Shown piece after piece: positions 24,984 to 64,000 of a stretch of 64,000 bases of DNA. Numbering within the stretch: the stretch's first letter is position 1; each line of letters starts with the position of its first letter. The DNA lies in contig OU744451.1 of NCBI GenBank assembly GCA_916610825.1, positions 6,555,345 through 6,619,344 of the forward strand. The letters run 5' to 3'. The DNA comes from Haliclystus octoradiatus. Its lineage: Eukaryota > Cnidaria > Staurozoa > Stauromedusae > Haliclystidae. The notes under the pieces are model-generated. The model worked only from the letters and a program-made list of their open reading frames with translations. It did not search any database and was not told the origin of the DNA. Made by a program: the position numbers and the translations under genes.

Positions 24984-25013
24984 TGTGTGTGTGTGTAGTG
25001 GGGGGGGGGACGG
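24984..25013. repeat. (TG)n followed by G-run
   Basis: GTGTGTGTGTG then a run of nine G near 25001-25010, absent from the left arm at the matching point. Typical slippage-prone sequence. Confidence 0.8.
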
Positions 25014-28110: not shown

Positions 28111-28282
28111 CTTGGGATCAACTATCTGGAACGTATTGTGCGATAAAACGCACTACGTGATAACGTATTATTCAATAATAATTAGTTGACTTTGACCGCA
28201 TTTTGGCCAGGACAAAAATAATTCAACGTATTACGCGATAAAACCTATTGTACGATAACGTATTATGCGATATTGACTGTAG

Positions 28283-29575: not shown

Positions 29576-29653
29576 GAGAACAAAAGAAAAATTTGAACTG
29601 AATCAAATAGATATCCAATTATATTAGTAATACGTTGGTGATACTAACGAAGG

Positions 29654-31315: not shown

Positions 31316-31501
31316 TAATCAAATTGGAAATTCTCATTCGTGATATCATGTTCGAATTACAAGATTGATTGTGTCTTCGAACCTAGTTTTGCTATCGTGA
31401 TTTGGTGTCAAACTTTAAATCAATCAGATTGATCGAATCATTTTCGACATAATCCAATGGTATGTCTATTCTTATAAGATTTATCTGGTTTCTTTCTTTA
31501 G

Positions 31502-31860
31502 GTGCTATCCGACATTTGATTTCAGGACATTGCATCAAAAAATCTGCTGGTAGCAATCTTATGACATTTTCACCAGACTGTGACAGCATTTTCGAGTTTT
31601 GGAATGAGAGAATGTACCATGATGGTCAGGCATCATGCTTAGCAGAAGATGGAACTAGTACTGATGGCAATCTCATTTCAACAACAAGTTGCAGTGATGA
31701 TTTGAGTCGTATGTGGATTGATGAAAACAAGGCTATAATTAGCCCAACCGGTGATTGTGTTACACAATTTGGTGGTGATGAATATCCGGACCCTGGAACT
31801 CGCATTCATTTTCATTCAAAAAAATGTCAATTAGAAAAAAAGAAATATGAAATAGTATAA
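31502..31860 (+). CDS. Ricin-B-like (beta-trefoil) terminal exon, right gene copy
   Basis: Terminal exon after a TTTCTTTCTTTAG acceptor (AG at 31500-31501); stop at 31858-31860. The product GAIRHLISGHCIKKSAGSN...FEFWNERMYHDGQASCLAEDG...SRMWIDENKAIISPTGDCV...KKYEIV aligns with the left copy along its whole length, with substitutions but no stops or frameshifts. A second possible acceptor (TTTGATTTCAG, 11 codons in) keeps the same phase. Compared with the decayed transposons nearby, the maintained frame in both copies suggests selection. The 3' flank, 29 bp after the stop, is the segment (31889-31956) carried into every macro-unit of the satellite array. Confidence 0.6.
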
Positions 31861-31888
31861 ATTGACTGAGAAATACGTTTAAAAATTT

Positions 31889-31956
31889 TACCGCATAAAC
31901 CTGATACTTGCACATGGCATGTCTAGACTAAGACGAGCATCTCTATATTAAAGGGA
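31889..31956. repeat. Host 3'-flank segment captured by the satellite macro-unit
   Basis: TACCGCATAAACCTGATACT and following bases to CTCTATATTA. The left arm has the same sequence beside its gene (2113-2190, inverted), so it is host flank. Near-identical copies occur at 48417, 52786 and 63662, each joined upstream to satellite. All share the right-arm variant GACGAGCATC (left arm GACGAAGCATC), so they derive from this copy. Confidence 0.95.
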
Positions 31957-32180
31957 CTGCCTAGGCGTAAAACTATTTTTTTTTATCTTAAGTGGAATTA
32001 ATATGAAATTTGGCAAACTTGTGCGTGTTAGGGATGGGACCTCACTTTCCTATAATTTTTTGAAGAATTTTGTTCTTAAAATAGAATAATGCTTGTTGAT
32101 GACGTCATAAATAATGTTTTTTTCATGATCACAATTTAAATTTCACAATTTCATGATCTTTTTATTTCTTTTTTTTCATG
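31957..32180. other. Non-satellite leader of macro-unit 1 (transposon-end-like)
   Basis: Starts AAAGGGACTGCCTAGGCGTAAAAC at the point where homology to the left arm stops, contains TGATGACGTCATAAAT near 32098, and ends in TTTTTTTTCATGATATTTACATC before satellite. It is repeated at the start of each macro-unit (48483-48713, 52853-53084, 63728-63960). The abrupt start with a GGGACTGCC terminus resembles a MITE end, but no partner TIR is visible in the window. Confidence 0.5.
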
Positions 32181-35100
32181 ATATTTACATCATTACTTGA
32201 TCATAGTCGGTAGATGTACATTAATATTATATCATTACTAGATCAGCCTGGATACAATGGACTCATTGCTAGATCATAGTGGGTATATTACTATTATTGC
32301 TACATCATAGTGGATAGATTTACATTAATACTAGATCATTACTAGATCAAAGTGGATACAATTGATTAATTGCTAGATCATAGTGGGTATATGTACATTA
32401 TTTCTAGATCATAGTGGGTATATGTACACTATTTCTAGATCATAGCCAGATCAGCGTGGATAAACTTGACTTATTGCTATATCATATTGGGCATATGTAC
32501 ATTATTACTAAATCATAGTGTGTAGATGTACAATACTATTGGATCATCATAGTAGGTCATAGTGGATAAATGCTTGTTCCTTCTAGATCATACATAGATA
32601 ATAGAGCTTACCAGTCACTTATTGCTAGATCATAGTGTGTAGATGTAATTGATTACTAGATCAATGTTAGATTACAGTTGACAAAAGTTTCTTCTTTCTA
32701 GAACATTCCTAGATCAGCGTGAATACACTTGACTCATTGCTAGATCATAGTGGGTAGATGTACATAACTTTCAGATCATAGCGGGTATATGTACATTATT
32801 TCTAGATCACATTGGATTTATGTACATACCTACTAGATCATAGTGGGTAGATGTACATTATTTATAGATCATTACTAGATCACCGTGGATACAATTGACT
32901 CATTGCTAGATCATAGTGGGTATATTACAATTATTGCTACAAAATAATGGAGAGATTTAGATTATCACTAGATCATTACTAGATCAAAGTGGGTACAAGT
33001 GACTCATTGCTATATCATATTGGGTATATATACATTATTACTAGATCATAGTGGGTGAATGTACAATACTATTGGATCATCAGTAATTCATAGTGGATAC
33101 ATGTTTGTTCTTTCCAGATCATAAATAGATAATAGAGCCTATCAGTCACTTATTGCTAGATCATAGTGGGTAGATGTACATAACTTCTAGATCATAGTGG
33201 GTATATGCACAATATTTTTAGATTACAGTGGGTATATTTACATTATTACTTGATCATAGTGGGTAGATGTACATTATTTCTAGATATTATTAGATCAGCC
33301 AGGATACAATTGACTCATTGCTAGATCATAGTGGGTAAATTAACATTATTGCTACATCATAGTGGAGAGATTTAGATTTTCACTAGATCATTACTAGATC
33401 AAAATGGGTACATGTGACTCATTGCTATATCATATTGGGCATATGTACATTATTACTAGAACATAGTGGGTATATGTACACTATTTACAGATCATTGCCA
33501 GATCATTGAGGATACACTTGACTCATTGCTAGATCATAGTGGGTAGATGTACATAATTTCTAGATCATAATGGGTATATGTACGTTATTTCTAGACCACA
33601 GTGGTATATCTACATTACTTCTAGATCACATTGGGTATATGTACATTATTACTACATCATAGTGGGTAGATGTACATTATTTCCAGATCATTACTAGATC
33701 AGCGCGGATAAAATTTACTCATTGCTAGAACATAGTGGGTATATTACCATTATTGCTACATCATAGTGGAGAGATTTCGATTTTCACTAGATCATTGCCA
33801 TATCAGCGTGGATACACTTGACTCATTGCTATATCATATTGGGCATATGTACATTATTACTAGATCATAGTGTGTAGATGTACAATGCTATTGGATCATC
33901 AGTAGGTCATAGTGGATAAATGCTTGTTCTTTCTAGATCATATATAGATAATAGAGCTTACCAGTCACTTATTGCTAGATCATAGTGTGTAGATGTAACT
34001 GATTACTACATAACTGTTAGATTACAGTTGACAAAAGTTTCTTCTTTCTAGATCGTTCCTAGATCAGCGTGAATACACTTGATTAATTGCTAGATAATAG
34101 TGGGTAGATGTACATAATTTCAAGATCATAGTGGGTATATGCACAGCATTTCTAGACTACAGTGGGTATATTTACATTATTACTTCATCATACTGGGTAG
34201 AATTACATTATTTTTAGATCATTACTAGATCAGCCTGGATACAATGGACTCATTGCTAGATCATAGTGGGTATATTAGCATTATTGCTACATCATAGTGG
34301 ATAGATTTACATTAATACTAGATCATTACTAGATCAAAGTGGATACAATTGATTAATTGTTAGATCATAGTGGGTATATGTACATTATTTCTAGATCATA
34401 GTGGGTATATGTACACTATTTCTAGATCATTGCCAGATCAGCGTGGATACACCTGACTCATTGCTATATCATATTGGGCATATGTACATTATTACTAGAT
34501 CATAGTGTGTAGATGTACAATGCGATTGGATCATCAGTAGGTCATAGAGGATAAATGCTTGTTCTTTCTAGATTATATATCGATAGTAGAGCTTAGCAGT
34601 CACTTATTGCTAGATCATAGTGTGTAGATGTAACTGATTACTAGATCACTGTTAGATTACAGTTGACAAAAGTTTTTTCTTTCTAGAACATTCCTAGATC
34701 AGCGTGAATACACTTGACTCATTGCTAGATCATAGTGGGTAGATGTACATAACTTTCAGATCATAGCGGGTATATGTACATTATTTCTAGATCACATTGG
34801 GTTTATGTACATACCTACTAGATCATAGTGGGTAGATGTACATTATTTCTAGATCATTACTAGATCACCGTGGATACAATTGACTCATTGCTAGATCATA
34901 GTGGGTATATGTACATTATTTCTAGATCATAGTGGGTATATGTACATTATTTCTAGATCATTGCCAGATCAGCGTCGATAAACTTGACTTATTGCTATAT
35001 CATATTGGGCATATGTACATTATTAGTAGATCATAGTGTGGAGATGTACAATACTATTGGATCATCAGTAGGTCTTAATGGATAAATTCTTGTTCCTTCT

Positions 35101-38100
35101 AGATCATACATAGATGATAGAGCTTACCAGTAACTTATTGCTAGATGATAGTGTGTAGATGTAACTGATTACTAGATCACTGTTAGATTACTGTTGACAA
35201 AAGTTTCTTCTTTCTAGATTATTCCTAGATCAGCGTGAATAAATTTGACTCATTGCTAGATCATAGTGGGTAGATGTACATAACTTTCAGGTCATAGCGG
35301 GTATATGTACATTATTTCTAAATCACATTGGGTAAATGTACATTCTTACTAGATCATAGTGGGTAGATGTACATTATTTCTAGATCATTACTAGATCACC
35401 GTGGATACAATTGACTCATTGCTAGATCATAGTTGGTATATTACAATTATTGCTACATAATAGTGGAGAGATTTAGATTATCACTAAATCATTACTAGAT
35501 CAAAGTGGGTACAAGTGACTCATTGCCATATCATATTGGGTATATATACATTATTACTAGATCATAGTGGGTGAATGTACAATACTACTGGATCATCAGT
35601 AATTCATAGTGGATACATGTTTGTTCTTTTTAGATCATAAATAGATAATAGAGCCTATCAGTCAGTTATTACTAGATCATAGTCGGTAGATGTACATAAT
35701 TTCTAGATCATAGTGGGTATATGCACAATATTTCTAGATTACAGTGGGTAAATTTACATTATTACTTGATCATAGTGGGTAGATGTACATTATTTCTAGA
35801 TATTACTAGATCAGCCTGGATACAATTGACTCATTGCTAGATCATAGTAGGTATATAACCATTATTGCTACATCATAGTGGAGAGATTTAGATTTTCACT
35901 AGATCATTACTAGATCAAAGTGGGTACATGTGACTCATTGCTATATCATAATGGGCATATGTACATTATTACTAGCACATAGTTTGGGTATATGTACAGT
36001 ATTTCTATATCATTACTAGATCAAAGTGGATACAATTGATTAATTGCTAGATCATAGTGGGTATATGTACATTATTTCTAGATCATAGTAGGTATATGTA
36101 CACTATTTCTAGATCATTGCCAGATCAGCGTGGATAAACTTGACTTATTGCTATATCATATTGGGCATATGTACATTATTACTAGATCATAGTGTGGAGA
36201 TGTACAATTGGATCATCAGTAGGTCATAGTGGATAAATTCTTGTTCCTTCTAGATCATACCTAGATAATAGAGCTTACCAGTCACTTATTGCTAGATCAT
36301 AGTGTGTAGATGTAACTGATTACTAGATCACTGTTAGATTACAGTTGACAAAGTTTCTTCTTTCTAGAACATTCCTAGATCAGCCTGAATAAACTTGACT
36401 CATTGCTAGATCATAGTGGGTAGATGTACATAATTTCTAGATCATAATGGGTATATGTACATTATTTCTAGATCACATTTTTTATATGTACATTCTTACT
36501 AAATCATAGTGGGTAGATGTACATTATTTCTAGATCATTGTCAGATCAGCCTGGATACACCTGACTCATTGCTATATCATATTGGGCATATGTGAATTAT
36601 TACTAGATCATAGTGTGTAGATGTACAATGCTATTGGATCATCAGTAGGTCATAGAGGATAAATGCTTGTTCTTTCTAGATCATATATCGATAATAGAGC
36701 TTAGCAGTCACTTATTGCTAGATCATAGTGTGTAGATGTAACTGATTACTAGATCACTGTTAGATTACAGTTGACAAAAATTTTTTCTTTCTAGAACATT
36801 CCTAGATCAGCGTGAATACACTTGACTCATTGCTAGATCATAGTTGGTAGATGTACATAATTTTCAGATCATAGCGTGTATATGTACATTGTTTCTAGAT
36901 CATTGCCAGATCAGCGTGGATAAACTTGACTTACTGATATATCATAGTGGGCATATGTACATTATTACTACATCATAATGGAGAGATTTAGATTATCACT
37001 AGATCATTACTAGATCAAAGTGGGTACAAGTGACTCATTGCTATATCATATTGGGTACATATACATTATTACTAGATCATAGTGGGTGAATGTACAATAC
37101 TATTGAATCATCAGTAATTGATAGTGGATACATGTTTGTTCTTTCTAGATCATAAATAGATAATAGAGCCTATCAGTCACTTATTGCTAGATCATAGTTT
37201 GTAGATGTACATAATTTCTAGATCATAGTGGGTATATGCACAATATTTCTAGATTACAGTGGTTATATTTACATTATTACTTGATCATAGTGGGTAGATG
37301 TACATGATTTCTAGATATTATTAGATCAGCCTGGATACAATTGATTCATTGCTAGATCATAGTGGGTATATTACCATTATTGCTACATCATAGTGGAGAG
37401 ATTTAGATTTTCACTACATCATTACTAGATCAAAGTGGGTACATGCAAGTCATTGCTATATCATATTGGGCATATGTACATTATTACTAGAACATAGTGG
37501 GTATACGTACACTATTTCTAGATCATTGCCAGATCAGCGTGGATACACTTGCCTCATTGCTAGATCATAGTGGGTAGATGTAAATAATTTCTAGATCATA
37601 ATGGGTATATGTTCATTATTACTACATCATAGTGGGTTGATGTACATTATCTCCAGATCATTACTAGATCAGCGTGGATAAAATTTACTCATTGCTAGAA
37701 GAAAGTGGGTATATTACCATTATTGCTACATCATAGTGGAGAGATTTCGATTTTCACTAGATCATTGCCAGATCAGCGTGGATACACTTGACTCATTGCT
37801 ATATAATATTGGGCATATGTACATTATTACTAGATCATAGTGTGTAGATGTACAATGCTATTGGATCATCAGTAGGTCATAGAGGATAAATGCTTGTTCT
37901 TTATAGATCATATATAGATAATAGAGCTTATCAGTCACTCATAGCTAGATCATAGTGGGTAGATGTACAAAATTTCCAGATCATAGTGGGTATATGCACA
38001 ACATTTTTAGACTAGAGTGGGTATATTTACATTATTACTTGATCAAAGTAGGTAGATGTACATTATTTTTAGATCATTACTAGATCAGCCTGGATACAAT

Positions 38101-41100
38101 GGACTCATTCCTAGATCATAGTGGGTATATTACCATTATTTCTACATCATAGTAGATATATTTACATTAATACTATATTATTACTAGATCAAAGTGGATA
38201 CAATTGATTAATTGCTAGATCATAGTTGGTATATGTACATTATTTCTAGATCATAGTGGGTATATGTACATTATTTCTAGATGATAGTGTATAGATGTAA
38301 CTGATTACTAGATCACTGTTAGATTACAGTTGACAAAAGTTTCTTCTTTCTAGATTATTCCTAGATCAGCGTGAATAAATTTGACTCATTGCTAGATCAT
38401 AGTGTGTAGATGTACATAACTTTCAGGTCATACCGGGTATATGTACATTATTTCTAAATCACATTGGGTAAATGTACATTCTTACTAGATCATAGTGGGT
38501 AGATGTACATTATTTATAGATCATTACTAGATCACCGTGGATACAATTGACTCATTGCTAGATCATAGTGGGTATATTACAATTATTGCTACAAAATAAT
38601 GGAGAGATTTAGATTATCACTAGATCATTACTAGATCAAAGTGGGTACAAGTGACTCATTGCTATATCATATTGGGTATATATACATTATTACTAGATCA
38701 TAGTGGGTGAATGTACAATACTATTGGATCATCAGTAATTCATAGTGGATACATGTTTGTTCTTTCCAGATCATAAATAGATAATAGAGCCTATCAGTCA
38801 CTTATTGCTAGATCATAGTGGGTAGATGTACATAACTTCTAGATCATAGTGGGTATATGCACAATATTTTTAGATTACAGTGGGTATATTTACATTATTA
38901 CTTGATCATAGTGGGTAGATGTACATTATTTCTAGATATTATTAGATCAGCCAGGATACAATTGACTCATTGCTAGATCATAGTGGGTAAATTAACATTA
39001 TTGCTACATCATAGTGGAGAGATTTAGATTTTCACTAGATCATTACTAGATCAAAATGGGTACATGTGACTCATTGCTATATCATATTGGGCATATGTAC
39101 ATTATTACTAGAACATAGTGGGTATATGTACACTATTTACAGATCATTGCCAGATCATTGAGGATACACTTGACTCATTGCTAGATCATAGTGGGTAGAT
39201 GTACATAATTTCTAGATCATAATGGGTATATGTACGTTATTTCTAGACCACAGTGGTATATCTACATTACTTCTAGATCACATTGGGTATATGTACATTA
39301 TTACTACATCATAGTGGGTAGATGTACATTATTTCCAGATCATTACTAGATCAGCGCGGATAAAATTTACTCATTGCTAGAACATAGTGGGTATATTACC
39401 ATTATTGCTACATCATAGTGGAGAGATTTCGATTTTCACTAGATCATTGCCATATCAGCGTGGATACACTTGACTCATTGCTATATCATATTGGGCATAT
39501 GTACATTATTACTAGATCATAGTGTGTAGATGTACAATGCTATTGGATCATCAGTAGGTCATAGTGGATAAATGCTTGTTCTTTCTAGATCATATATAGA
39601 TAATAGAGCTTACCAGTCACTTATTGCTAGATCATAGTGTGTAGATGTAACTGATTACTACATAACTGTTAGATTACAGTTGACAAAAGTTTCTTCTTTC
39701 TAGATCGTTCCTAGATCAGCGTGAATACACTTGATTAATTGCTAGATAATAGTGGGTAGATGTACATAATTTCAAGATCATAGTGGGTATATGCACAGCA
39801 TTTCTAGACTACAGTGGGTATATTTACATTATTACTTCATCATACTGGGTAGAATTACATTATTTTTAGATCATTACTAGATCAGCCTGGATACAATGGA
39901 CTCATTGCTAGATCATAGTGGGTATATTAGCATTATTGCTACATCATAGTGGATAGATTTACATTAATACTAGATCATTACTAGATCAAAGTGGATACAA
40001 TTGATTAATTGTTAGATCATAGTGGGTATATGTACATTATTTCTAGATCATAGTGGGTATATGTACACTATTTCTAGATCATTGCCAGATCAGCGTGGAT
40101 ACACCTGACTCATTGCTATATCATATTGGGCATATGTACATTATTACTAGATCATAGTGTGTAGATGTACAATGCGATTGGATCATCAGTAGGTCATAGA
40201 GGATAAATGCTTGTTCTTTCTAGATTATATATCGATAGTAGAGCTTAGCAGTCACTTATTGCTAGATCATAGTGTGTAGATGTAACTGATTACTAGATCA
40301 CTGTTAGATTACAGTTGACAAAAGTTTTTTCTTTCTAGAACATTCCTAGATCAGCGTGAATACACTTGACTCATTGCTAGATCATAGTGGGTAGATGTAC
40401 ATAACTTTCAGATCATAGCGGGTATATGTACATTATTTCTAGATCACATTGGGTTTATGTACATACCTACTAGATCATAGTGGGTAGATGTACATTATTT
40501 CTAGATCATTACTAGATCACCGTGGATACAATTGACTCATTGCTAGATCATAGTGGGTATATGTACATTATTTCTAGATCATAGTGGGTATATGTACACT
40601 ATTTCTAGATCATTGCCAGATCAGCGTCGATAAACTTGACTTATTGCTATATCATATTGGGCATATGTACATTATTAGTAGATCATAGTGTGGAGATGTA
40701 CAATACTATTGGATCATCAGTAGGTCTTAATGGATAAATTCTTGTTCCTTCTAGATCATACATAGATGATAGAGCTTACCAGTAACTTATTGCTAGATGA
40801 TAGTGTGTAGATGTAACTGATTACTAGATCACTGTTAGATTACTGTTGACAAAAGTTTCTTCTTTCTAGATTATTCCTAGATCAGCGTGAATAAATTTGA
40901 CTCATTGCTAGATCATAGTGGGTAGATGTACATAACTTTCAGGTCATAGCGGGTATATGTACATTATTTCTAAATCACATTGGGTAAATGTACATTCTTA
41001 CTAGATCATAGTGGGTAGATGTACATTATTTCTAGATCATTACTAGATCACCGTGGATACAATTGACTCATTGCTAGATCATAGTTGGTATATTACAATT

Positions 41101-44100
41101 ATTGCTACATAATAGTGGAGAGATTTAGATTATCACTAAATCATTACTAGATCAAAGTGGGTACAAGTGACTCATTGCCATATCATATTGGGTATATATA
41201 CATTATTACTAGATCATAGTGGGTGAATGTACAATACTACTGGATCATCAGTAATTCATAGTGGATACATGTTTGTTCTTTTTAGATCATAAATAGATAA
41301 TAGAGCCTATCAGTCAGTTATTACTAGATCATAGTCGGTAGATGTACATAATTTCTAGATCATAGTGGGTATATGCACAATATTTCTAGATTACAGTGGG
41401 TAAATTTACATTATTACTTGATCATAGTGGGTAGATGTACATTATTTCTAGATATTACTAGATCAGCCTGGATACAATTGACTCATTGCTAGATCATAGT
41501 AGGTATATAACCATTATTGCTACATCATAGTGGAGAGATTTAGATTTTCACTAGATCATTACTAGATCAAAGTGGGTACATGTGACTCATTGCTATATCA
41601 TAATGGGCATATGTACATTATTACTAGCACATAGTTTGGGTATATGTACAGTATTTCTATATCATTACTAGATCAAAGTGGATACAATTGATTAATTGCT
41701 AGATCATAGTGGGTATATGTACATTATTTCTAGATCATAGTAGGTATATGTACACTATTTCTAGATCATTGCCAGATCAGCGTGGATAAACTTGACTTAT
41801 TGCTATATCATATTGGGCATATGTACATTATTACTAGATCATAGTGTGGAGATGTACAATACTATTGGATCATCAGTAGGTCATAGTGGATAAATTCTTG
41901 TTCCTTCTAGATCATACCTAGATAATAGAGCTTACCAGTCACTTATTGCTAGATCATAGTGTGTAGATGTAACTGATTACTAGATCACTGTTAGATTACA
42001 GTTGACAAAGTTTCTTCTTTCTAGAACATTCCTAGATCAGCCTGAATAAACTTGACTCATTGCTAGATCATAGTGGGTAGATGTACATAATTTCTAGATC
42101 ATAATGGGTATATGTACATTATTTCTAGATCACATTTTTTATATGTACATTCTTACTAAATCATAGTGGGTAGATGTACATTATTTCTAGATCATTGTCA
42201 GATCAGCCTGGATACACCTGACTCATTGCTATATCATATTGGGCATATGTGAATTATTACTAGATCATAGTGTGTAGATGTACAATGCTATTGGATCATC
42301 AGTAGGTCATAGAGGATAAATGCTTGTTCTTTCTAGATCATATATCGATAATAGAGCTTAGCAGTCACTTATTGCTAGATCATAGTGTGTAGATGTAACT
42401 GATTACTAGATCACTGTTAGATTACAGTTGACAAAAATTTTTTCTTTCTAGAACATTCCTAGATCAGCGTGAATACACTTGACTCATTGCTAGATCATAG
42501 TTGGTAGATGTACATAATTTTCAGATCATAGCGTGTATATGTACATTGTTTCTAGATCATTGCCAGATCAGCGTGGATAAACTTGACTTACTGATATATC
42601 ATAGTGGGCATATGTACATTATTACTACATCATAATGGAGAGATTTAGATTATCACTAGATCATTACTAGATCAAAGTGGGTACAAGTGACTCATTGCTA
42701 TATCATATTGGGTACATGTACATTATTACTAGATCATAGTGGGTGAATGTACAATACTATTGAATCATCAGTAATTGATAATGGATACATGTTTGTTCTT
42801 TCTAGATCATAAATAGATAATAGAGCCTATCAGTCACTTATTGCTAGATCATAGTTTGTAGATGTACATAATTTCTAGATCATAGTGGGTATATGCACAA
42901 TATTTCTAGATTACAGTGGTTATATTTACATTATTACTTGATCATAGTGGGTAGATGTACATGATTTCTAGATATTATTAGATCAGCCTGGATACAATTG
43001 ATTCATTGCTAGATCATAGTGGGTATATTACCATTATTGCTACATCATAGTGGAGAGATTTAGATTTTCACTACATCATTACTAGATCAAAGTGGGTACA
43101 TGCAAGTCATTGCTATATCATATTGGGCATATGTACATTATTACTAGAACATAGTGGGTATACGTACACTATTTCTAGATCATTGCCAGATCAGCGTGGA
43201 TACACTTGCCTCATTGCTAGATCATAGTGGGTAGATGTAAATAATTTCTAGATCATAATGGGTATATGTTCATTATTACTACATCATAGTGGGTTGATGT
43301 ACATTATCTCCAGATCATTACTAGATCAGCGTGGATAAAATTTACTCATTGCTAGAAGAAAGTGGGTATATTACCATTATTGCTACATCATAGTGGAGAG
43401 ATTTCGATTTTCACTAGATCATTGCCAGATCAGCGTGGATACACTTGACTCATTGCTATATAATATTGGGCATATGTACATTATTACTAGATCATAGTGT
43501 GTAGATGTACAATGCTATTGGATCATCAGTAGGTCATAGAGGATAAATGCTTGTTCTTTATAGATCATATATAGATAATAGAGCTTATCAGTCACTCATA
43601 GCTAGATCATAGTGGGTAGATGTACAAAATTTCTAGATCATAGTGGGTATATGCACAACATTTTTAGACTAGAGTGGGTATATTTACATTATTACTTGAT
43701 CAAAGTAGGTAGATGTACATTATTTTTAGATCATTACTAGATCAGCCTGGATACAATGGACTCATTCCTAGATCATAGTGGGTATATTACCATTATTTCT
43801 ACATCATAGTAGATATATTTACATTAATACTATATTATTACTAGATCAAAGTGGATACAATTGATTAATTGCTAGATCATAGTTGGTATATGTACATTAT
43901 TTCTAGATCATAGTGGGTATATGTACATTATTTCTAGATGATAGTGTATAGATGTAACTGATTACTAGATCACTGTTAGATTACAGTTGACAAAAGTTTC
44001 TTCTTTCTAGATTATTCCTAGATCAGCGTGAATAAATTTGACTCATTGCTAGATCATAGTGTGTAGATGTACATAACTTTCAGGTCATACCGGGTATATG

Positions 44101-47100: not shown

Positions 47101-48416
47101 TATTGGGTACATGTACATTATTACTAGATCATAGTGGGTGAATGTACAATACTATTGAATCATCAGTAATTGATAGTGGATACATGTTTGTTCTTTCTAG
47201 ATCATAAATAGATAATAGAGCCTATCAGTCACTTATTGCTAGATCATAGTTTGTAGATGTACATAATTTCTAGATCATAGTGGGTATATGCACAATATTT
47301 CTAGATTACAGTGGTTATATTTACATTATTACTTGATCATAGTGGGTAGATGTACATGATTTCTAGATATTATTAGATCAGCCTGGATACAATTGATTCA
47401 TTGCTAGATCATAGTGGGTATATTACCATTATTGCTACATCATAGTGGAGAGATTTAGATTTTCACTACATCATTACTAGATCAAAGTGGGTACATGCGA
47501 GTCATTGCTATATCATATTGGGCATATGTACATTATTACTAGAACATAGTGGGTATACGTACACTATTTCTAGATCATTGCCAGATCAGCGTGGATACAC
47601 TTGCCTCATTGCTAGATCATAGTGGGTAGATGTAAATAATTTCTAGATCATAATGGGTATATGTTCATTATTACTACATCATAGTGGGTTGATGTACATT
47701 ATCTCCAGATCATTACTAGATCAGCGTGGATAAAACTTACTCATTGCTAGAAGAAAGTGGGTATATTACCATTATTGCTACATCATAGTGGAGAGATTTC
47801 GATTTTCACTAGATCATTGCCAGATCAGCGTGGATACACTTGACTCATTGCTATATAATATTGGGCATATGTACATTATTACTAGATCATAGTGTGTAGA
47901 TGTACAATGCGATTGGATCATCAGTAGGTCATAGAGGATAAATGCTTGTTCTTTCTAGATCATATATAGATAATAGAGCTTATCAGTCACTCATTGCTAG
48001 ATCATAGTGGGTAGATGTACAAAATTTCTAGATCATAGTGGGTATATGCACAACATTTTTAGACTACAGTGGGTATATTTACATTATTACTTGATCAAAG
48101 TAGGTAGATGTACATTATTTTTAGATCATTACTAGATCAGCCTGGATACAATGGACTCATTCCTAGATCATAGTGGGTATATTACCATTATTTCTACATC
48201 ATAGTAGATATATTTACATTAATACTATATTATTACTAGATCAAAGTGGATACAATTGATTAATTGCTAGATCATAGTTGGTATATGTACATTATTTCTA
48301 GATCATAGTGGGTATATGTACATTATTTCTAGATGATAGTGTGTAGATTTAACTGATTACTAGATCACTGTTAGATTACAGTTGACAAAAGTTTCTTCTT
48401 TCTAGATTATTCATAA

Positions 48417-51400: not shown

Positions 51401-52785
51401 GGAGAGATTTAGATTATCACTAGATCATTACTAGATCAAAGTGGGTACAAGTGACTCATTGCTATATCATATTGGGTACATGTACATTATTACTAGATCA
51501 TAGTGGGTGAATGTACAATACTATTGAATCATCAGTAATTGATAGTGGATACATGTTTGTTCTTTCTAGATCATAAATAGATAATAGAGCCTATCAGTCA
51601 CTTATTGCTAGATCATAGTTTGTAGATGTACATAATTTCTAGATCATAGTGGGTATATGCACAATATTTCTAGATTACAGTGGTTATATTTACATTATTA
51701 CTTGATCATAGTGGGTAGATGTACATGATTTCTAGATATTATTAGATCAGCCTGGATACAATTGATTCATTGCTAGATCATAGTGGGTATATTACCATTA
51801 TTGCTACATCATAGTGGAGAGATTTAGATTTTCACTACATCATTACTAGATCAAAGTGGGTACATGCGAGTCATTGCTATATCATATTGGGCATATGTAC
51901 ATTATTACTAGAACATAGTGGGTATACGTACACTATTTCTAGATCATTGCCAGATCAGCGTGGATACACTTGCCTCATTGCTAGATCATAGTGGGTAGAT
52001 GTAAATAATTTCTAGATCATAATGGGTATATGTTCATTATTACTACATCATAGTGGGTTGATGTACATTATCTCCAGATCATTACTAGATCAGCGTGGAT
52101 AAAACTTACTCATTGCTAGAAGAAAGTGGGTATATTACCATTATTGCTACATCATAGTGGAGAGATTTCGATTTTCACTAGATCATTGCCAGATCAGCGT
52201 GGATACACTTGACTCATTGCTATATAATATTGGGCATATGTACATTATTACTAGATCATAGTGTGTAGATGTACAATGCTATTGGATCATCAGTAGGTCA
52301 TAGAGGATAAATGCTTGTTCTTTATAGATCATATATAGATAATAGAGCTTATCAGTCACTCATAGCTAGATCATAGTGGGTAGATGTACAAAATTTCTAG
52401 ATCATAGTGGGTATATGCACAACATTTTTAGACTACAGTGGGTATATTTACATTATTACTTGATCAAAGTAGGTAGATGTACATTATTTTTAGATCATTA
52501 CTAGATCAGCCTGGATACAATGGACTCATTCCTAGATCATAGTGGGTATATTACCATTATTTCTACATCATAGTAGATATATTTACATTAATACTATATT
52601 ATTACTAGATCAAAGTGGATACAATTGATTAATTGCTAGATCATAGTTGGTATATGTACATTATTTCTAGATCATAGTGGGTATATGTACATTATTTCTA
52701 GATGATAGTGTGTAGATTTAACTGATTACTAGATCACTGTTAGATTACAGTTGACAAAAGTTTCTTCTTTCTAGATTATTCATAA
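48417..52785. repeat. Satellite macro-unit 2 (4,369 bp, deletion derivative)
   Basis: Starts and ends like macro-unit 3 but is 6,507 bp shorter. It follows the unit-3 order to about 49860 and then joins sequence equivalent to about 60735 onward, with a locally different segment at about 50155-50400. Shares the CTCGTTGATGACGTCA variant with units 3 and 4, against CTTGTTGATG in unit 1. Confidence 0.95.
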
Positions 52786-55700
52786 TACCGCATAAACCTG
52801 ATACTTGCACATGGCATGTCTAGACTAAGACGAGCATCTCTATATTAAAGGGACTGCCTAGGCGTAAAACCATTTTTTTTTATCTTAAGTGGAATTAATA
52901 TGAAATTTGGCAAACTTGTGCGTGTTAGGGATGGGACCTCACTTTCCTATAATTTTTTGAAGAATTTTGTTCTTAAAATAGAATAATGCTCGTTGATGAC
53001 GTCATAAATAATGTTTTTTTCATGATCACAATTTAAATTTCACAATTTCATGATCTTTTTATTTCTTTTTTTTCATGATATTTACATCATTACTTGATCA
53101 TAGTCGGTAGATGTACATTAATATTATATCATTACTAGATCAGCCTGGATACAATGGACTCATTGCTAGATCATAGTGGGTATATTACTATTATTGCTAC
53201 ATCATAGTGGATAGATTTACATTAATACTAGATCATTACTAGATCAAAGTGGATACAATTGATTAATTGCTAGATCATAGTGGGTATATGTACATTATTT
53301 CTAGATCATAGTGGGTATATGTACACTATTTCTAGATCATAGCCAGATCAGCGTGGATAAACTTGACTTATTGCTATATCATATTGGGCATATGTACATT
53401 ATTACTAAATCATAGTGTGTAGATGTACAATACTATTGGATCATCATAGTAGGTCATAGTGGATAAATGCTTGTTCCTTCTAGATCATACATAGATAATA
53501 GAGCTTACCAGTCACTTATTGCTAGATCATAGTGTGTAGATGTAATTGATTACTAGATCAATGTTAGATTACAGTTGACAAAAGTTTCTTCTTTCTAGAA
53601 CATTCCTAGATCAGCGTGAATACACTTGACTCATTGCTAGATCATAGTGGGTAGATGTACATAACTTTCAGATCATAGCGGGTATATGTACATTATTTCT
53701 AGATCACATTGGGTTTATGTACATACCTACTAGATCATAGTGGGTAGATGTACATTATTTATAGATCATTACTAGATCACCGTGGATACAATTGACTCAT
53801 TGCTAGATCATAGTGGGTATATTACAATTATTGCTACAAAATAATGGAGAGATTTAGATTATCACCAGATCATTACTAGATCAAAGTGGGTACAAGTGAC
53901 TCATTGCTATATCATATTGGGTATATATACATTATTACTAGATCATAGTGGGTGAATGTACAATACTATTGGATCATCAGTAATTCATAGTGGATACATG
54001 TTTGTTCTTTCCAGATCATAAATAGATAATAGAGCCTATCAGTCACTTATTGCTAGATCATAGTGGGTAGATGTACATAACTTCTAGATCATAGTGGGTA
54101 TATGCACAATATTTTTAGATTACAGTGGGTATATTTACATTATTACTTGATCATAGTGGGTAGATGTACATTATTTCTAGATATTATTAGATCAGCCAGG
54201 ATACAATTGACTCATTGCTAGATCATAGTGGGTAAATTAACATTATTGCTACATCATAGTGGAGAGATTTAGATTTTCACTAGATCATTACTAGATCAAA
54301 ATGGGTACATGTGACTCATTGCTATATCATATTGGGCATATGTACATTATTACTAGAACATAGTGGGTATATGTACACTATTTACAGATCATTGCCAGAT
54401 CATTGAGGATACACTTGACTCATTGCTAGATCATAGTGGGTAGATGTACATAATTTCTAGATCATAATGGGTATATGTACGTTATTTCTAGACCACAGTG
54501 GTATATCTACATTACTTCTAGATCACATTGGGTATATGTACATTATTACTACATCATAGTGGGTAGATGTACATTATTTCCAGATCATTACTAGATCAGC
54601 GCGGATAAAATTTACTCATTGCTAGAACATAGTGGGTATATTACCATTATTGCTACATCATAGTGGAGAGATTTCGATTTTCACTAGATCATTGCCATAT
54701 CAGCGTGGATACACTTGACTCATTGCTATATCATATTGGCAATATGTACATTATTACTAGATCATAGTGTGTAGATGTACAATGCTATTGGATCATCAGT
54801 AGGTCATAGTGGATAAATGCTTGTTCTTTCTAGATCATATATAGATAATAGAGCTTACCAGTCACTTATTGCTAGATCATAGTGTGTAGATGTAACTGAT
54901 TACTACATAACTGTTAGATTACAGTTGACAAAAGTTTCTTCTTTCTAGATCGTTCCTAGATCAGCGTGAATACACTTGATTAATTGGTAGATAATAGTGG
55001 GTAGATGTACATAATTTCAAGATCATAGTGGGTATATGCACAGCATTTCTAGACTACAGTGGGTATATTTACATTATTACTTCATCATACTGGGTAGAAT
55101 TACATTATTTTTAGATCATTACTAGATCAGCCTGGATACAATGGACTCATTGCTAGATCATAGTGGGTATATTAGCATTATTGCTACATCATAGTGGATA
55201 GATTTACATTAATACTAGATCATTACTAGATCAAAGTGGATACAATTGATTAATTGTTAGATCATAGTGGGTATATGTACATTATTTCTAGATCATAGTG
55301 GGTATATGTACACTATTTCTAGATCATTGCCAGATCAGCGTGGATACACCTGACTCATTGCTATATCATATTGGGCATATGTACATTATTACTAGATCAT
55401 AGTGTGTAGATGTACAATGCGATTGGATCATCAGTAGGTCATAGAGGATAAATGCTTGTTCTTTCTAGATTATATATCGATAGTAGAGCTTAGCAGTCAC
55501 TTATTGCTAGATCATAGTGTGTAGATGTAACCGATTACTAGATCACTGTTAGATTACAGTTGACAAAAGTTTTTTCTTTCTAGAACATTCCTAGATCAGC
55601 GTGAATACACTTGACTCATTGCTAGATCATAGTGGGTAGATGTACATAACTTTCAGATCATAGCGGGTATATGTACATTATTTCTAGATCACATTGGGTT

Positions 55701-58700
55701 TATGTACATACCTACTAGATCATAGTGGGTAGATGTACATTATTTCTAGATCATTACTAGATCACCGTGGATACAATTGACTCATTGCTAGATCATAGTG
55801 GGTATATGTACATTATTTCTAGATCATAGTGGGTATATGTACACTATTTCTAGATCATTGCCAGATCAGCGTCGATAAACTTGACTTATTGCTATATCAT
55901 ATTGGGCATATGTACATTATTAGTAGATCATAGTGTGGAGATGTACAATACTATTGGATCATCAGTAGGTCTTAATGGATAAATTCTTGTTCCTTCTAGA
56001 TCATACATAGATGATAGAGCTTACCAGTAACTTATTGCTAGATGATAGTGTGTAGATGTAACTGATTACTAGATCACTGTTAGATTACTGTTGACAAAAG
56101 TTTCTTCTTTCTAGATTATTCCTAGATCAGCGTGAATAAATTTGACTCATTGCTAGATCATAGTGGGTAGATGTACATAACTTTCAGGTCATAGCGGGTA
56201 TATGTACATTATTTCTAAATCAAATTGGGTAAATGTACATTCTTACTAGATCATAGTGGGTAGATGTACATTATTTCTAGATCATTACTAGATCACCGTG
56301 GATACAATTGACTCATTGCTAGATCATAGTTGGTATATTACAATTATTGCTACATAATAGTGGAGAGATTTAGATTATCACTAAATCATTACTAGATCAA
56401 AGTGGGTACAAGTGACTCATTGCCATATCATATTGGGTATATATACATTATTACTAGATCATAGTGGGTGAATGTACAATACTACTGGATCATCAGTAAT
56501 TCATAGTGGATACATGTTTGTTCTTTTTAGATCATAAATAGATAATAGAGCCTATCAGTCAGTTATTACTAGATCATAGTCGGTAGATGTACATAATTTC
56601 TAGATCATAGTGGGTATATGCACAATATTTCTAGATTACAGTGGGTAAATTTACATTATTACTTGATCATAGTGGGTAGATGTACATTATTTCTAGATAT
56701 TACTAGATCAGCCTGGATACAATTGACTCATTGCTAGATCATAGTAGGTATATAACCATTATTGCTACATCATAGTGGAGAGATTTAGATTTTCACTAGA
56801 TCATTACTAGATCAAAGTGGGTACATGTGACTCATTGCTATATCATAATGGGCATATGTACATTATTACTAGCACATAGTTTGGGTATATGTACAGTATT
56901 TCTATATCATTACTAGATCAAAGTGGATACAATTGATTAATTGCTAGATCATAGTGGGTATATGTACATTATTTCTAGATCATAGTAGGTATATGTACAC
57001 TATTTCTAGATCATTGCCAGATCAGCGTGGATAAACTTGACTTATTGCTATATCATATTGGGCATATGTACATTATTACTAGATCATAGTGTGGAGATGT
57101 ACAATACTATTGGATCATCAGTAGGTCATAGTGGATAAATTCTTGTTCCTTCTAGATCATACCTAGATAATAGAGCTTACCAGTCACTTATTGCTAGATC
57201 ATAGTGTGTAGATGTAACTGATTACTAGATCACTGTTAGATTACAGTTGACAAAGTTTCTTCTTTCTAGAACATTCCTAGATCAGCCTGAATAAACTTGA
57301 CTCATTGCTAGATCATAGTGGGTAGATGTACATAATTTCTAGATCATAATGGGTATATGTACATTATTTCTAGATCACATTTTTTATATGTACATTCTTA
57401 CTAAATCATAGTGGGTAGATGTACATTATTTCTAGATCATTGTCAGATCAGCCTGGATACACCTGACTCATTGCTATATCATATTGGGCATATGTGAATT
57501 ATTACTAGATCATAGTGTGTAGATGTACAATGCTATTGGATCATCAGTAGGTCATAGAGGATAAATGCTTGTTCTTTCTAGATCATATATCGATAATAGA
57601 GCTTAGCAGTCACTTATTGCTAGATCATAGTGTGTAGATGTAACTGATTACTAGATCACTGTTAGATTACAGTTGACAAAAATTTTTTCTTTCTAGAACA
57701 TTCCTAGATCAGCGTGAATACACTTGACTCATTGCTAGATCATAGTTGGTAGATGTACATAATTTTCAGATCATAGCGTGTATATGTACATTGTTTCTAG
57801 ATCATTGCCAGATCAGCGTGGATAAACTTGACTTACTGATATATCATAGTGGGCATATGTACATTATTACTACATCATAATGGAGAGATTTAGATTATCA
57901 CTAGATCATTACTAGATCAAAGTGGGTACAAGTGACTCATTGCTATATCATATTGGGTACATGTACATTATTACTAGATCATAGTGGGTGAATGTACAAT
58001 ACTATTGAATCATCAGTAATTGATAATGGATACATGTTTGTTCTTTCTAGATCATAAATAGATAATAGAGCCTATCAGTCACTTATTGCTAGATCATAGT
58101 TTGTAGATGTACATAATTTCTAGATCATAGTGGGTATATGCACAATATTTCTAGATTACAGTGGTTATATTTACATTATTACTTGATCATAGTGGGTAGA
58201 TGTACATGATTTCTAGATATTATTAGATCAGCCTGGATACAATTGATTCATTGCTAGATCATAGTGGGTATATTACCATTATTGCTACATCATAGTGGAG
58301 AGATTTAGATTTTCACTACATCATTACTAGATCAAAGTGGGTACATGCAAGTCATTGCTATATCATATTGGGCATATGTACATTATTACTAGAACATAGT
58401 GGGTATACGTACACTATTTCTAGATCATTGCCAGATCAGCGTGGATACACTTGCCTCATTGCTAGATCATAGTGGGTAGATGTAAATAATTTCTAGATCA
58501 TAATGGGTATATGTTCATTATTACTACATCATAGTGGGTTGATGTACATTATCTCCAGATCATTACTAGATCAGCGTGGATAAAATTTACTCATTGCTAG
58601 AAGAAAGTGGGTATATTACCATTATTGCTACATCATAGTGGAGAGATTTCGATTTTCACTAGATCATTGCCAGATCAGCGTGGATACACTTGACTCATTG

Positions 58701-61700
58701 CTATATAATATTGGGCATATGTACATTATTACTAGATCATAGTGTGTAGATGTACAATGCTATTGGATCATCAGTAGGTCATAGAGGATAAATGCTTGTT
58801 CTTTATAGATCATATATAGATAATAGAGCTTATCAGTCACTCATAGCTAGATCATAGTGGGTAGATGTACAAAATTTCTAGATCATAGTGGGTATATGCA
58901 CAACATTTTTAGACTAGAGTGGGTATATTTACATTATTACTTGATCAAAGTAGGTAGATGTACATTATTTTTAGATCATTACTAGATCAGCCTGGATACA
59001 ATGGACTCATTCCTAGATCATAGTGGGTATATTACCATTATTTCTACATCATAGTAGATATATTTACATTAATACTATATTATTACTAGATCAAAGTGGA
59101 TACAATTGATTAATTGCTAGATCATAGTTGGTATATGTACATTATTTCTAGATCATAGTGGGTATATGTACATTATTTCTAGATGATAGTGTATAGATGT
59201 AACTGATTACTAGATCACTGTTAGATTACAGTTGACAAAAGTTTCTTCTTTCTAGATTATTCCTAGATCAGCGTGAATAAATTTGACTCATTGCTAGATC
59301 ATAGTGTGTAGATGTACATAACTTTCAGGTCATACCGGGTATATGTACATTATTTCTAAATCACATTGGGTAAATGTACATTCTTACTAGATCATAGTGG
59401 GTAGATGTACATTATTTCTAGATCATTAATATATCACTGTGGATACAATTGACTCATTGCTAGATCATAGTTGGTATATTACAATTATTGCTACATAGTA
59501 GTGGAGAGATTTAGATTATCACTAAATCATTACTAGATCAAAGTGGGTACAAATGACTCATTGCCATATCATATTGGGTATATGTACATTATTACTAGAT
59601 CATAGTGGGTGAATGTACAATACTACTGGATCATCAGTAATTCATAGTGGATACATGTTTGTTCTTTTTAGATCATAAATAGATAATAGAGCCTATCAGT
59701 CACTTATTACTAGATCATAGTGGGTAGATGTACATAATTTGTAGATCATAGTGGGTATATGCACAATATTTCTAGATTACAGTGGGTAAATTTACATTAT
59801 TACGTGATCATAGTGGGTAGATGTACATTATTTCTAAATATTACTATATCAGCCTGGATACAATTGACTCATTGTTAGATCATAGTAGGTATATTACCAT
59901 TATTGCTACATCATAGTGGAGAGATTTAGATTTTCCCTAGATCATTACTAGATCAAAGTGGGTACATGTGACTCATTGCTATATCATAATGGGCATATGT
60001 ACATTATTACTAGAACATAGTGGGTATATGTACAGTATTTCTAGATCATTTCTAGATCAAAGTGGATACAATTGATTAATTGCTAGATCATAGTTGGTAT
60101 ATGTACATTATTTCTAGATCATATTGGGTATATGCACAATATTTCTAGATTACAGTGGGTAAATTTACATTATTACTTGATCATAGTGGGTAAATGTACA
60201 TAATTTTCAGATCATAGCGTGTATATGTACATTATTTCTAGATCATAGTGGGTATATGTACACTATTTCTAGATCATTGCCAGATCAGCGTGGATAAACT
60301 TGACTTACTGATATATCATATTGGGCATATGTACATTATTACTACATCATAATGGAGAGATTTAGATTATCACTAGATCATTACTAGATCAAAGTGGGTA
60401 CAAGTGACTCATTGCTATATCATATTGGGTATATGTACATTATTACTAGATCATAGTGGGTGAATGTACAATACTATTGAATCATCAGTAATTGATAGTG
60501 GATACATGTTTGTTCTTTCTAGATCATAAATAGATAATAGAGCCTATCAGTCACTTATTGCTAGATCATAGTTTGTGAATGTACATAATTTCTAGATCAT
60601 AGTGGGTATATGCACAATATTTCTAGATTACAGTGGTTATATTTAAATTATTACTTGATCATAGAGGGTAGATGTACATGATTTCTAGATATTATTAGAT
60701 CAGCCTGGATACAATTGATTCATTGCTAGATCATAGTGGGTATATTACCATTATTGCTACATCATAGTGGAGAGATTTAGATTTTCACTAGATCATTACT
60801 AGATCAAAGTGGGTACATGCGACTCATTGCTATATCATATTGGGCATATGTACATTATTACTAGAACATAGTGGGTATACGTACACTATTTCTAGATCAT
60901 TGCCAGATCAGCGTGGATACACTTGCCTCATTGCTAGATCATAGTGGGTAGATGTAAATAATTTCTAGATCATAATGGGTATATGTACGTTATTTCTAGA
61001 CCACAGTTGTATATGTACATTACTTCTAGATTACAGTGGGTAAATTTACATTATTACTTGATCATAGTGGGTAGATGTACATTATTTCTAGATATTACTA
61101 GATCAGCCTGGATACAATTGACTCATTGCTAGATCATAGTAGGTATATAACCATTATTGCTACATCATAGTGGAGAGATTTAGATTTTCACTAGATCATT
61201 ACTAGATCAAAGTGGGTACATGTGACTCATTGCTATATCATAATGGGCATATGTACATTATTACTAGCACATAGTTTGGGTATATGTACAGTATTTCTAT
61301 ATCATTACTAGATCAAAGTGGATACAATTGATTAATTGCTAGATCATAGTGGGTATATGTACATTATTTCTAGATCATAGTAGGTATATGTACACTATTT
61401 CTAGATCATTGCCAGATCAGCGTGGATAAACTTGACTTATTGCTATATCATATTGGGCATATGTACATTATTACTAGATCATAGTGTGGAGATGTACAAT
61501 ACTATTGGATCATCAGTAGGTCATAGTGGATAAATTCTTGTTCCTTCTAGATCATACCTAGATAATAGAGCTTACCAGTCACTTATTGCTAGATCATAGT
61601 GTGTAGATGTAACTGATTACTAGATCACTGTTAGATTACAGTTGACAAAGTTTCTTCTTTCTAGAACATTCCTAGATCAGCCTGAATAAACTTGACTCAT

Positions 61701-63661
61701 TGCTAGATCATAGTGGGTAGATGTACATAATTTCTAGATCATAATGGGTATATGTACATTATTTCTAGATCACATTTTTTATATGTACATTCTTACTAAA
61801 TCATAGTGGGTAGATGTACATTATTTCTAGATCATTGTCAGATCAGCGTGGATACACCTGACTCATTGCTATATCATATTGGGCATATGTGAATTATTAC
61901 TAGATCATAGTGTGTAGATGTACAATGCTATTGGATCATCAGTAGGTCATAGAGGATAAATGCTTGTTCTTTCTAGATCATATATCGATAATAGAGCTTA
62001 GCAGTCACTTATTGCTAGATCATAGTGTTTAGATGTAACTGATTACTAGATCACTGTTAGATTACAGTTGACAAAAGTTTTTTCTTTCTAGAACATTCCT
62101 AGATCAGCGTGAAAACACTTGACTCATTGCTAGATCATAGTTGGTAGATGTACATAATTTTCAGATCATAGCGTGTATATGTACATTGTTTCTAGATCAT
62201 TGCCAGATCAGCGTGGATAAACTTGACTTACTGATATATCATAGTGGGCATATGTACATTATTACTACATCATAATGGAGAGATTTAGATTATCACTAGA
62301 TCATTACTAGATCAAAGTGGGTACAAGTGACTCATTGCTATATCATATTGGGTACATGTACATTATTACTAGATCATAGTGGGTGAATGTACAATACTAT
62401 TGAATCATCAGTAATTGATAGTGGATACATGTTTGTTCTTTCTAGATCATAAATAGATAATAGAGCCTATCAGTCACTTATTGCTAGATCATAGTTTGTA
62501 GATGTACATAATTTCTAGATCATAGTGGGTATATGCACAATATTTCTAGATTACAGTGGTTATATTTACATTATTACTTGATCATAGTGGGTAGATGTAC
62601 ATGATTTCTAGATATTATTAGATCAGCCTGGATACAATTGATTCATTGCTAGATCATAGTGGGTATATTACCATTATTGCTACATCATAGTGGAGAGATT
62701 TAGATTTTCACTACATCATTACTAGATCAAAGTGGGTACATGCGAGTCATTGCTATATCATATTGGGCATATGTACATTATTACTAGAACATAGTGGGTA
62801 TACGTACACTATTTCTAGATCATTGCCAGATCAGCGTGGATACACTTGCCTCATTGCTAGATCATAGTGGGTAGATGTAAATAATTTCTAGATCATAATG
62901 GGTATATGTTCATTATTACTACATCATAGTGGGTTGATGTACATTATCTCCAGATCATTACTAGATCAGCGTGGATAAAACTTACTCATTGCTAGAAGAA
63001 AGTGGGTATATTACCATTATTGCTACATCATAGTGGAGAGATTTCGATTTTCACTAGATCATTGCCAGATCAGCGTGGATACACTTGACTCATTGCTATA
63101 TAATATTGGGCATATGTACATTATTACTAGATCATAGTGTGTAGATGTACAATGCTATTGGATCATCAGTAGGTCATAGAGGATAAATGCTTGTTCTTTA
63201 TAGATCATATATAGATAATAGAGCTTATCAGTCACTCATAGCTAGATCATAGTGGGTAGATGTACAAAATTTCTAGATCATAGTGGGTATATGCACAACA
63301 TTTTTAGACTACAGTGGGTATATTTACATTATTACTTGATCAAAGTAGGTAGATGTACATTATTTTTAGATCATTACTAGATCAGCCTGGATACAATGGA
63401 CTCATTCCTAGATCATAGTGGGTATATTACCATTATTTCTACATCATAGTAGATATATTTACATTAATACTATATTATTACTAGATCAAAGTGGATACAA
63501 TTGATTAATTGCTAGATCATAGTTGGTATATGTACATTATTTCTAGATCATAGTGGGTATATGTACATTATTTCTAGATGATAGTGTGTAGATTTAACTG
63601 ATTACTAGATCACTGTTAGATTACAGTTGACAAAAGTTTCTTCTTTCTAGATTATTCATAA
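52786..63661. repeat. Satellite macro-unit 3 (10,876 bp)
   Basis: Same order as macro-unit 1 but with a single 5.65-kb unit; the length difference, 5,652 bp, is exactly one unit. It carries ACTAT at about 57105, so it matches the second and not the first 5.65-kb copy of unit 1 at this point. Confidence 0.95.
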
Positions 63662-64000
63662 TACCGCATAAACCTGATACTTGCACATGGCATGTCTAGA
63701 CTAAGACGAGCATCTCTATATTAAAGGGACTGCCTAGGCGTAAAACCATTTTTTTTTATCTTAAGTGGAATTAATATGAAATTTGGCAAACTTGTGCGTG
63801 TTAGGGATGGGACCTCACTTTCCTATAATTTTTTGAAGAATTTTGTTCTTAAAATAGAATAATGCTCGTTGATGACGTCATAAATAATGTTTTTTTCATG
63901 ATCACAATTTAAATTTCACAATTTCATGATCTTTTTATTTCTTTTTTTTCATGATATTTACATCATTACTTGATCATAGTCGGTAGATGTACATTAATAT
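63662..64000. repeat. Satellite macro-unit 4 (start only)
   Basis: Repeats the captured host segment, the leader and the first satellite bases, then is cut by the window edge. The array therefore extends beyond 64000. Confidence 0.95.

What the first reader, a model, noticed from the sequence alone, without database searches (positions are those of the whole stretch)
31889..64000. Four-level satellite array with exact macro-unit arithmetic
Monomers (~31 bp) sit in 0.43-0.87 kb units, these in a 5,652-bp unit, and these in macro-units of 16,528, 4,369 and 10,876 bp. Unit 1 minus unit 3 equals one 5,652-bp unit. This depth of order and the near identity over kilobases point to recent, repeated unequal exchange or amplification, as in young centromeric or heterochromatic arrays.
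Basis: seen in the sequence. Interest (0 to 1): 0.75.

Follow-up and report, generated by a model that had tools for sequence, protein, structure and literature searches.

The report
Jellyfish higher-order satellite DNA array
A real, recently expanding, nested tandem-repeat (satellite) array on one chromosome of a stalked jellyfish; it is an ordinary kind of satellite DNA, and nothing here shows that it is a centromere.

Summary
By assembly sizes the window is Haliclystus octoradiatus (stalked jellyfish) chromosome 6 (G000:C7). From 32,181 a satellite array of 31-bp and 11-bp units runs past the window for about 237 kb in all. The "arithmetic" follows from one 5,652-bp tandem duplication in unit 1 that unit 3 lacks. 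Copies at the left end are 99.5-99.99% alike; farther in, other local periods take over. Two young BEL/Pao retrotransposons interrupt the array. The 31+11 grammar occurs in three more arrays; every hit that could be located lies on C2 or C7. The two C7 arrays are 84-89% alike, C7 and C2 arrays 65.5-73.7%. Best reading: a satellite grown and homogenised by repeated in-register tandem duplication (unequal exchange), which picked up flanking DNA once at its edge. A centromere is not excluded but unsupported: the 16-mer searched has no listed hit on C1, and the window shows no CENP-B-box excess. New member of a known kind; modest interest. Read depth could not be tested.

The parts
31324..31951 (+). 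Left flank element (holds a 132-codon ORF weakly like a Ricin_B lectin); an inverted relative lies at 2120-2744. The macro-unit start 31,889 cuts inside it
   Evidence: Ricin_B_lectin E 0.015, 15.9 bits, below the curated cut-off of 29
31889..32180 (+). Captured non-satellite flank (292 bp) that begins every macro-unit; 31,948-32,140 resembles dispersed repeats on C2, C6 and C11
   Evidence: (query 31,889-32,190): 12 matches, 6 of them on C7 at 99-100%, 4 partial relatives at 89-93%, 2 short ones
32181..64000 (+). Satellite array (31-bp and 11-bp units), continuing to about C7:6,824,324
31889..48416 (+). Macro-unit 1 (16,528 bp), holds the extra 5,652-bp copy
32861..38512 (+). 5,652-bp tandem copy, 5 bp shorter than its partner
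38513..44169 (+). 5,657-bp tandem partner
48417..52785 (+). Macro-unit 2 (4,369 bp)
52786..63661 (+). Macro-unit 3 (10,876 bp)
63662..64000 (+). Start of macro-unit 4 (3,954 bp in all; its end lies beyond the window)

Best explanation
This is a satellite array built from a 31-bp unit and an 11-bp unit (probably a 31-mer that lost 20 bp). It grows and stays uniform by repeated in-register tandem duplication, most simply unequal sister-chromatid exchange; break-induced replication or slippage would look alike. Shown: nested tandem copies, near-identity, the same unit grammar throughout, and one odd junction shared by all five internal macro-unit starts. Inferred: the order of events. At the left edge one illegitimate duplication first copied 292 bp of flanking DNA into the array with a novel junction. 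Later homologous exchanges multiplied that junction and duplicated a 5,652-bp segment inside unit 1. No function is shown; the likeliest is none beyond that of passive, heterochromatin-like satellite.
For: Exact unit starts and an identical 40-bp approach to the junction in 5 of 5 internal copies, different from the left-edge copy. 13 of 185 near-identical block pairs (at least 1.5 kb, over 97%) are simple tandems by my criterion (length at least 0.85 of the lag). Gapped similarity just outside those 13 blocks is 0.63-0.99; 18 of 26 borders exceed 0.787, the 95% level of 200 random array pairs (mean 0.704; flank pairs 0.587), one of the 18 only just (0.79). Commonest lags differ along the array. 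Median best identity of 400-bp windows is 100% in every 10-kb bin from 30 to 80 kb (and again at 220-230 kb), 97.8% in the last 19 kb. The C7 arrays resemble each other (84-89%) more than those on C2 (65.5-73.7%). Retrotransposon 1 splits a unit whose unsplit paralogue is in the array (lags 21,018 and 27,770 differ by 6,752 = 6,747 + a 5-bp target duplication).
Against: 8 of 26 tandem borders do not exceed the random-array control. 172 of the 185 block pairs are not simple tandems by my criterion; many are secondary pairings, but gene conversion or reinsertion of circles could also make such pairs. The two C2 arrays are only about 67% alike, so homogenisation does not hold chromosome-wide there. 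No reads were available, so a false duplication of a 7.7-kb block with about one mismatch cannot be excluded.
Confidence: 0.8

Rival explanations
1. The array is the centromere (or core of the pericentromere) of this chromosome, with the large C2 array its counterpart on chromosome 2, and other chromosomes using other sequences.
For: Long arrays (about 237 kb here; satellite hits over 368 kb on C2, with interruptions), homogenised and chromosome-specific, with young LTR retrotransposon insertions, are what many regional centromeres look like (established knowledge, recalled).
Against: All hits of three fully listed patterns (10, 11 and 37; 7 places are shared by the first two, so 51 distinct places) and the 100 listed of 2,057 hits of a fourth fall on C2 and C7 only; one search lists from the lowest contig upward and shows none on C1. 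Each of the two chromosomes has a second array, in mostly opposite orientation, 3.7-4.2 Mb away. No CENP-B-box excess in the window: 2 hits with up to one mismatch, 1.79 expected, both outside the array. No folding tendency in one 300-nt sample (z 0.30).
Confidence: 0.15
2. Part of the macro-unit order is an assembly artefact (false duplication or mis-ordered near-identical copies).
For: Exact repeats up to 6,347 bp and a 7,664-bp pair at 99.99%; the assembly is not fully phased (PMC9975415).
Against: Built from 68-fold HiFi reads; no N in the 264,000 bases counted. Of 138 maximal exact repeat pairs of 600 bp or more, 4 exceed 3.4 kb (6,347; 4,314; 3,415 twice), and copies carry private differences. 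The edges run into other sequence (a flank element at the left, a Copia-type frame at the right), and two retrotransposons have clean, different target duplications.
Confidence: 0.12
3. The small inverted array at C7:2.41 Mb and our array are two pieces of one array split by a 4.2-Mb inversion that broke inside the satellite (this can be true together with the best explanation).
For: Opposite orientation on the same chromosome; 84-89% identity to each other, against 65.5-73.7% between C7 and C2 arrays.
Against: No outgroup genome was available; an independent seeding or transposition of satellite would look the same.
Confidence: 0.3

Closest known systems
Primate alpha-satellite higher-order repeat arrays (features recalled)
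   Same: Diverged monomers ordered into near-identical multi-monomer units; chromosome-specific variants; recent local expansions
   Different: Units of 31 and 11 bp, not about 171 bp; no single dominant higher-order unit; centromere function not shown; located on two chromosomes only
Short-unit compound satellites of other animals and plants (recalled)
   Same: Short unit compounded into units of hundreds of bp and of kilobases by nested duplication
   Different: Two-length 31+11 grammar shared by four arrays; a captured flank piece repeated as a macro-unit label
BEL/Pao LTR retrotransposon (inserts at 79,254-86,000 and 203,589-210,335, window coordinates continued)
   Same: Peptidase_A17, aspartyl protease, integrase zinc-binding, DUF1759 and DUF5641 above their cut-offs, RVT_1 and rve just below theirs; 5-bp target duplications; 638-bp LTRs
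   Different: A passenger of the array, dispersed elsewhere in the genome (47 LTR-start hits), not part of the satellite

Membership tests
Satellite DNA with higher-order repeats | Long head-to-tail array of a short unit | tested here: met
   92-93% of anchor spacings in the 31/11/20/42 set in three parts of the array; about 237 kb including 13.5 kb of retrotransposon
Satellite DNA with higher-order repeats | Diverged monomers within a unit, near-identical units | tested here: met
   tandem-copy identity 98.0-99.97%, against a gapped mean of 70% for 200 random 150-bp pairs of the array
Satellite DNA with higher-order repeats | Concerted evolution: more alike within than between chromosomes | tested here: inconclusive
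   met for C7 (84-89% between its two arrays, 65.5-73.7% to C2), not for C2 (its two arrays 66.5-67.1%); samples of 15-16 pieces of 300 bp per set, 6 for the small C2 array
Centromeric satellite | Same satellite family on every chromosome | tested here: not met
   Located hits on C2 and C7 only, two arrays each; no listed hit on C1. More diverged relatives elsewhere are not excluded, and chromosome-specific centromeric satellites exist (recalled), so this does not exclude a centromere
Centromeric satellite | CENP-A/CENP-C occupancy | not testable with these tools
   no ChIP or cytology data
Centromeric satellite | CENP-B box (pattern recalled; not required in most taxa) | tested here: not met
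   window only: 2 hits with up to one mismatch, both outside the array, 1.79 expected
BEL/Pao retrotransposon (the inserts) | Pao peptidase A17 with protease, RT and integrase between LTRs, and a target duplication | tested here: met
   RVT_1 (25.2 of 29.6 bits) and rve (28.4 of 32.6) are below their cut-offs, Peptidase_A17 far above (151.2 of 22.3)

The most novel reading that the evidence does not exclude
The two unit lengths (31 and 11 bp, so 42, 73, 104, 135 ...) keep the conserved AGATCA site in 10.4-bp helical register over long stretches, because a DNA-binding protein reads the site on one face of the helix and packages these arrays, perhaps as the centromere-like chromatin of the two chromosomes that carry them.
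Probability: 0.07. Interest if true: 0.65.

Novelty: new member of a known kind. Interest (0 to 1): 0.27.

Why it matters
It is an assembled example, without N in the part counted, of how a satellite array grows in an early-branching animal: the captured 292-bp flank piece labels successive duplications, so their order may be read. Our literature searches listed little on cnidarian centromeres or satellites, and this array is a concrete locus for a CENP-A test. Taken alone it is ordinary satellite biology.

Tried and rejected
Rejected: coding function. No ORF of 120 codons or more lies in the array part of the window. Rejected: tRNA or known RNA genes in the window (none; one search is a bacterial-code tRNA scan). 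Rejected: hairpin-forming satellite (one 300-nt sample only, z 0.30). Rejected: the BEL element as a satellite-bound element; it is dispersed, with 47 LTR-start hits, 4 of them the LTRs of the two copies in this array. Rejected: one 124-kb duplication as the source of the two inserts; near-identity ends at the element's ends and the target duplications differ.

Considered and weakened: a special 10.4-bp signal. The AGATCA sites are in register (mean resultant 0.967 in 769 groups; with GATCA as the anchor 0.962, 0.964 and 0.940 in three parts of C7, 0.885 in 45 groups of the small C7 array, 0.813 in 119 groups of the large C2 array, 0.954 in 13 groups of the small C2 array). But one ancestral 20-bp deletion in a 31-mer gives this for free. 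The 10.33-bp harmonic of the typed 31-bp consensus (A+T power 130) is not far above the average over its harmonics that I reckon by hand (about 103, no call). The lower value in the large C2 array argues against strict selection. I did not test whether independent indels keep the register.

Led nowhere: (whole 5,652-bp unit against the genome) was not scored, too many candidates. In one search the unit 2 and unit 4 comparisons printed nothing under my filters (98.5% identity, 700 bp); those relations come. Literature: searches (2 papers; 4; 71, 10 listed; 3; 21, 12 listed; 6) listed no title on this satellite; of all listed papers only PMC9975415 was opened (part 1 of 2 of its text), the rest seen as listings.
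Full report
WHAT AND WHERE. The window is G000:C7:6,555,345-6,619,344 of a 261,861,806-bp genome in 33 contigs. Contig sizes (C2 38,981,262; C7 26,960,693) and the number of scaffolds match Haliclystus octoradiatus jrHalOcto1.1 (33 scaffolds, 261,898,343 bp), where the 26.96-Mb molecule is chromosome 6 and the 38.98-Mb one chromosome 2 (PMC9975415, part 1 of 2 of the text read). The match is by sizes; no tool named the organism, and the total differs by 36,537 bp.

THE OBSERVATION. It is real and accurately placed. The same 20 bp begin macro-units at 31,889, 48,417, 52,786, 63,662, 67,616 and 73,804 (the last two beyond the window in continued coordinates), giving 16,528, 4,369, 10,876, 3,954 and 6,188 bp. 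One shuffled copy of the array has almost none of the regular spacing (0.9% against 93.1% of spacings in the set 31/11/20/42 bp).

ANATOMY. The basic units are 31 bp and 11 bp. Among the TRF rows shown (128 of 278 were not shown), the widest gives a 104-bp compound (3 x 31 + 11) over 32,181-47,682. The 11-bp unit reads as a 31-mer without 20 internal bases (sequence; inference). One recurring marker spaces sub-units: 33 of 42 spacings in the window are 426-851 bp and 9 are 1,028-1,914 bp. Units of 2.5-6 kb follow, then the macro-units. Farther right other lags lead: 2,533, 3,697, 2,471, 3,186, 5,063, 966, 1,291 and others. So the hierarchy is local, not global.

THE MACRO-UNIT LABEL. 31,889-32,180 is not satellite. 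A search of the genome with 31,889-32,190 gives 12 matches: six on C7 at 99-100% (the left edge and the five internal copies), four partial ones at 89-93% on C6 (two), C2 and C11, one inverted 63-bp one in this window, and one of 80% elsewhere on C7. Self-comparison of the flank shows that 31,324-31,887 has an inverted 86% relative at 2,183-2,744, continued by the 63-bp match. So 31,889 cuts inside a flank element. In five of five internal copies the 40 bases before the label are identical to each other and differ from the left edge. The simplest history is one illegitimate duplication that carried flank into the array, then homologous exchanges that multiplied it. The left-edge copy differs from the internal ones at two bases in the stretch printed (read by eye).

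EXTENT AND PASSENGERS. The array runs on to about C7:6,824,324 (the edge read by eye), about 237 kb with its inserts; no N in the 264,000 bases counted. At its right end it abuts a Copia-type reverse transcriptase frame on the minus strand (RVT_2 E 1.5e-15). Two 6,747-bp BEL/Pao elements sit in it at 79,254-86,000 and 203,589-210,335 (continued coordinates), each with its own 5-bp target duplication; the LTRs of the first are identical over 638 bp, those of the second differ at 2 of 638, and the copies differ from each other at 11 of 6,747 (domains). Both are young, and the first went into a unit whose empty paralogue is still present.

THE FAMILY IN THE GENOME. The exact 26-mer occurs 263 times forward and 7 reverse; 263 forward ones are in this array. 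The 16-mer occurs 2,057 times (1,002 forward, 1,055 reverse): 938 forward in this array; the 100 listed are all on C2, none on C1 (that listings run from the lowest contig upward is read). Of the forward hits, 938 plus 54 listed at C2:11.06-11.14 Mb leave 10 unlocated; of the reverse hits 46 were listed, 33 lie at C7:2.41-2.42 Mb, and the rest were not located, though the length of the large C2 array could hold them. Three longer patterns were listed in full: 10, 11 and 37 hits (51 distinct places), all in four arrays: C2:11.06-11.14 Mb (+ in 54 of 56 listed hits), C2:14.89-15.26 Mb (-), C7:2.41-2.42 Mb (-) and ours (+). Snippets of C2 from 15.00 to 15.25 Mb are satellite in 9 of 9, while 2 of the 6 earlier C2 snippets (at 14.92 and 14.96 Mb) are mostly not, so that array is interrupted. 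More diverged relatives on other chromosomes are not excluded.

RELATION OF THE ARRAYS. In 300-bp samples (15 or 16 per set, 6 for the small C2 array; 15 of 16 of the large C2 set matched), median best matches between parts of our array are 92.7-98.0%, between ours and the small C7 array 84.3-89.3%, between C7 and C2 arrays 65.5-73.7%; the two C2 arrays are 66.5-67.1% alike (the large C2 array was represented by 18 kb, the small one by 2 kb). C7 follows the usual pattern of homogenisation within a chromosome; C2 does not.

MECHANISM. 185 block pairs of at least 1.5 kb and over 97% identity exist; 13 are simple tandems of 1.9-3.3 copies. Similarity just outside the tandems is 0.63-0.99 gapped; 18 of 26 borders exceed the random-array 95% level of 0.787, 8 do not. 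This supports in-register exchange without proving it against gene conversion. Median best identity is 100% in each 10-kb bin from 30 to 80 kb and at 220-230 kb, 99.0-99.9% in most of the rest, 97.8% in the last 19 kb. So the left end, and a stretch near 220 kb, look the most recently active, the right edge the least.

FUNCTION. Nothing here shows one. A centromere is the natural guess, but the family was located on two chromosomes only, twice on each, in mostly opposite orientations. No CENP-B box excess in the window, no hairpin tendency in one sample, no known RNA gene in the window. The 10.4-bp register of the AGATCA sites is striking to look at but would follow from one 20-bp deletion. 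The literature searches (listings, two of them capped) showed no title on this satellite; the library holds open-licence papers only, so this is weak evidence that it is undescribed.

Noticed in passing
window 2120-5871 and 24317-31951: Decayed inverted duplication in the left flank: collinear inverted pieces at 79-93% (for example 4186-5226 with 25396-26450 at 93%), each arm with a 144-codon ORF (4408-4842 and 25782-26216) without a Pfam match at E 0.001. The array begins at the outer tip of the right arm.
   Followed up: partly
window 11805-18797: Retroelement remains on the minus strand: Pao peptidase, DUF1759 and RVT_1 above their cut-offs, endonuclease matches just below.
   Followed up: partly
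window 31948-32140: About 190-bp dispersed repeat next to the array, 89-93% to copies on C2, C6 and C11; type not determined.
   Followed up: no
C7:6,634,598-6,641,344 and 6,758,933-6,765,679: 4 of 47 LTR-start hits of a young, dispersed BEL/Pao element (two whole copies) lie in this 237-kb array of a 262-Mb genome, more than an even spread would give; the numbers are small and the remark is after the fact.
   Followed up: partly
window 27228-28101: Small, unrelated 16-bp minisatellites (CTTTCGGTGCAACGAC type) in the left flank.
   Followed up: no
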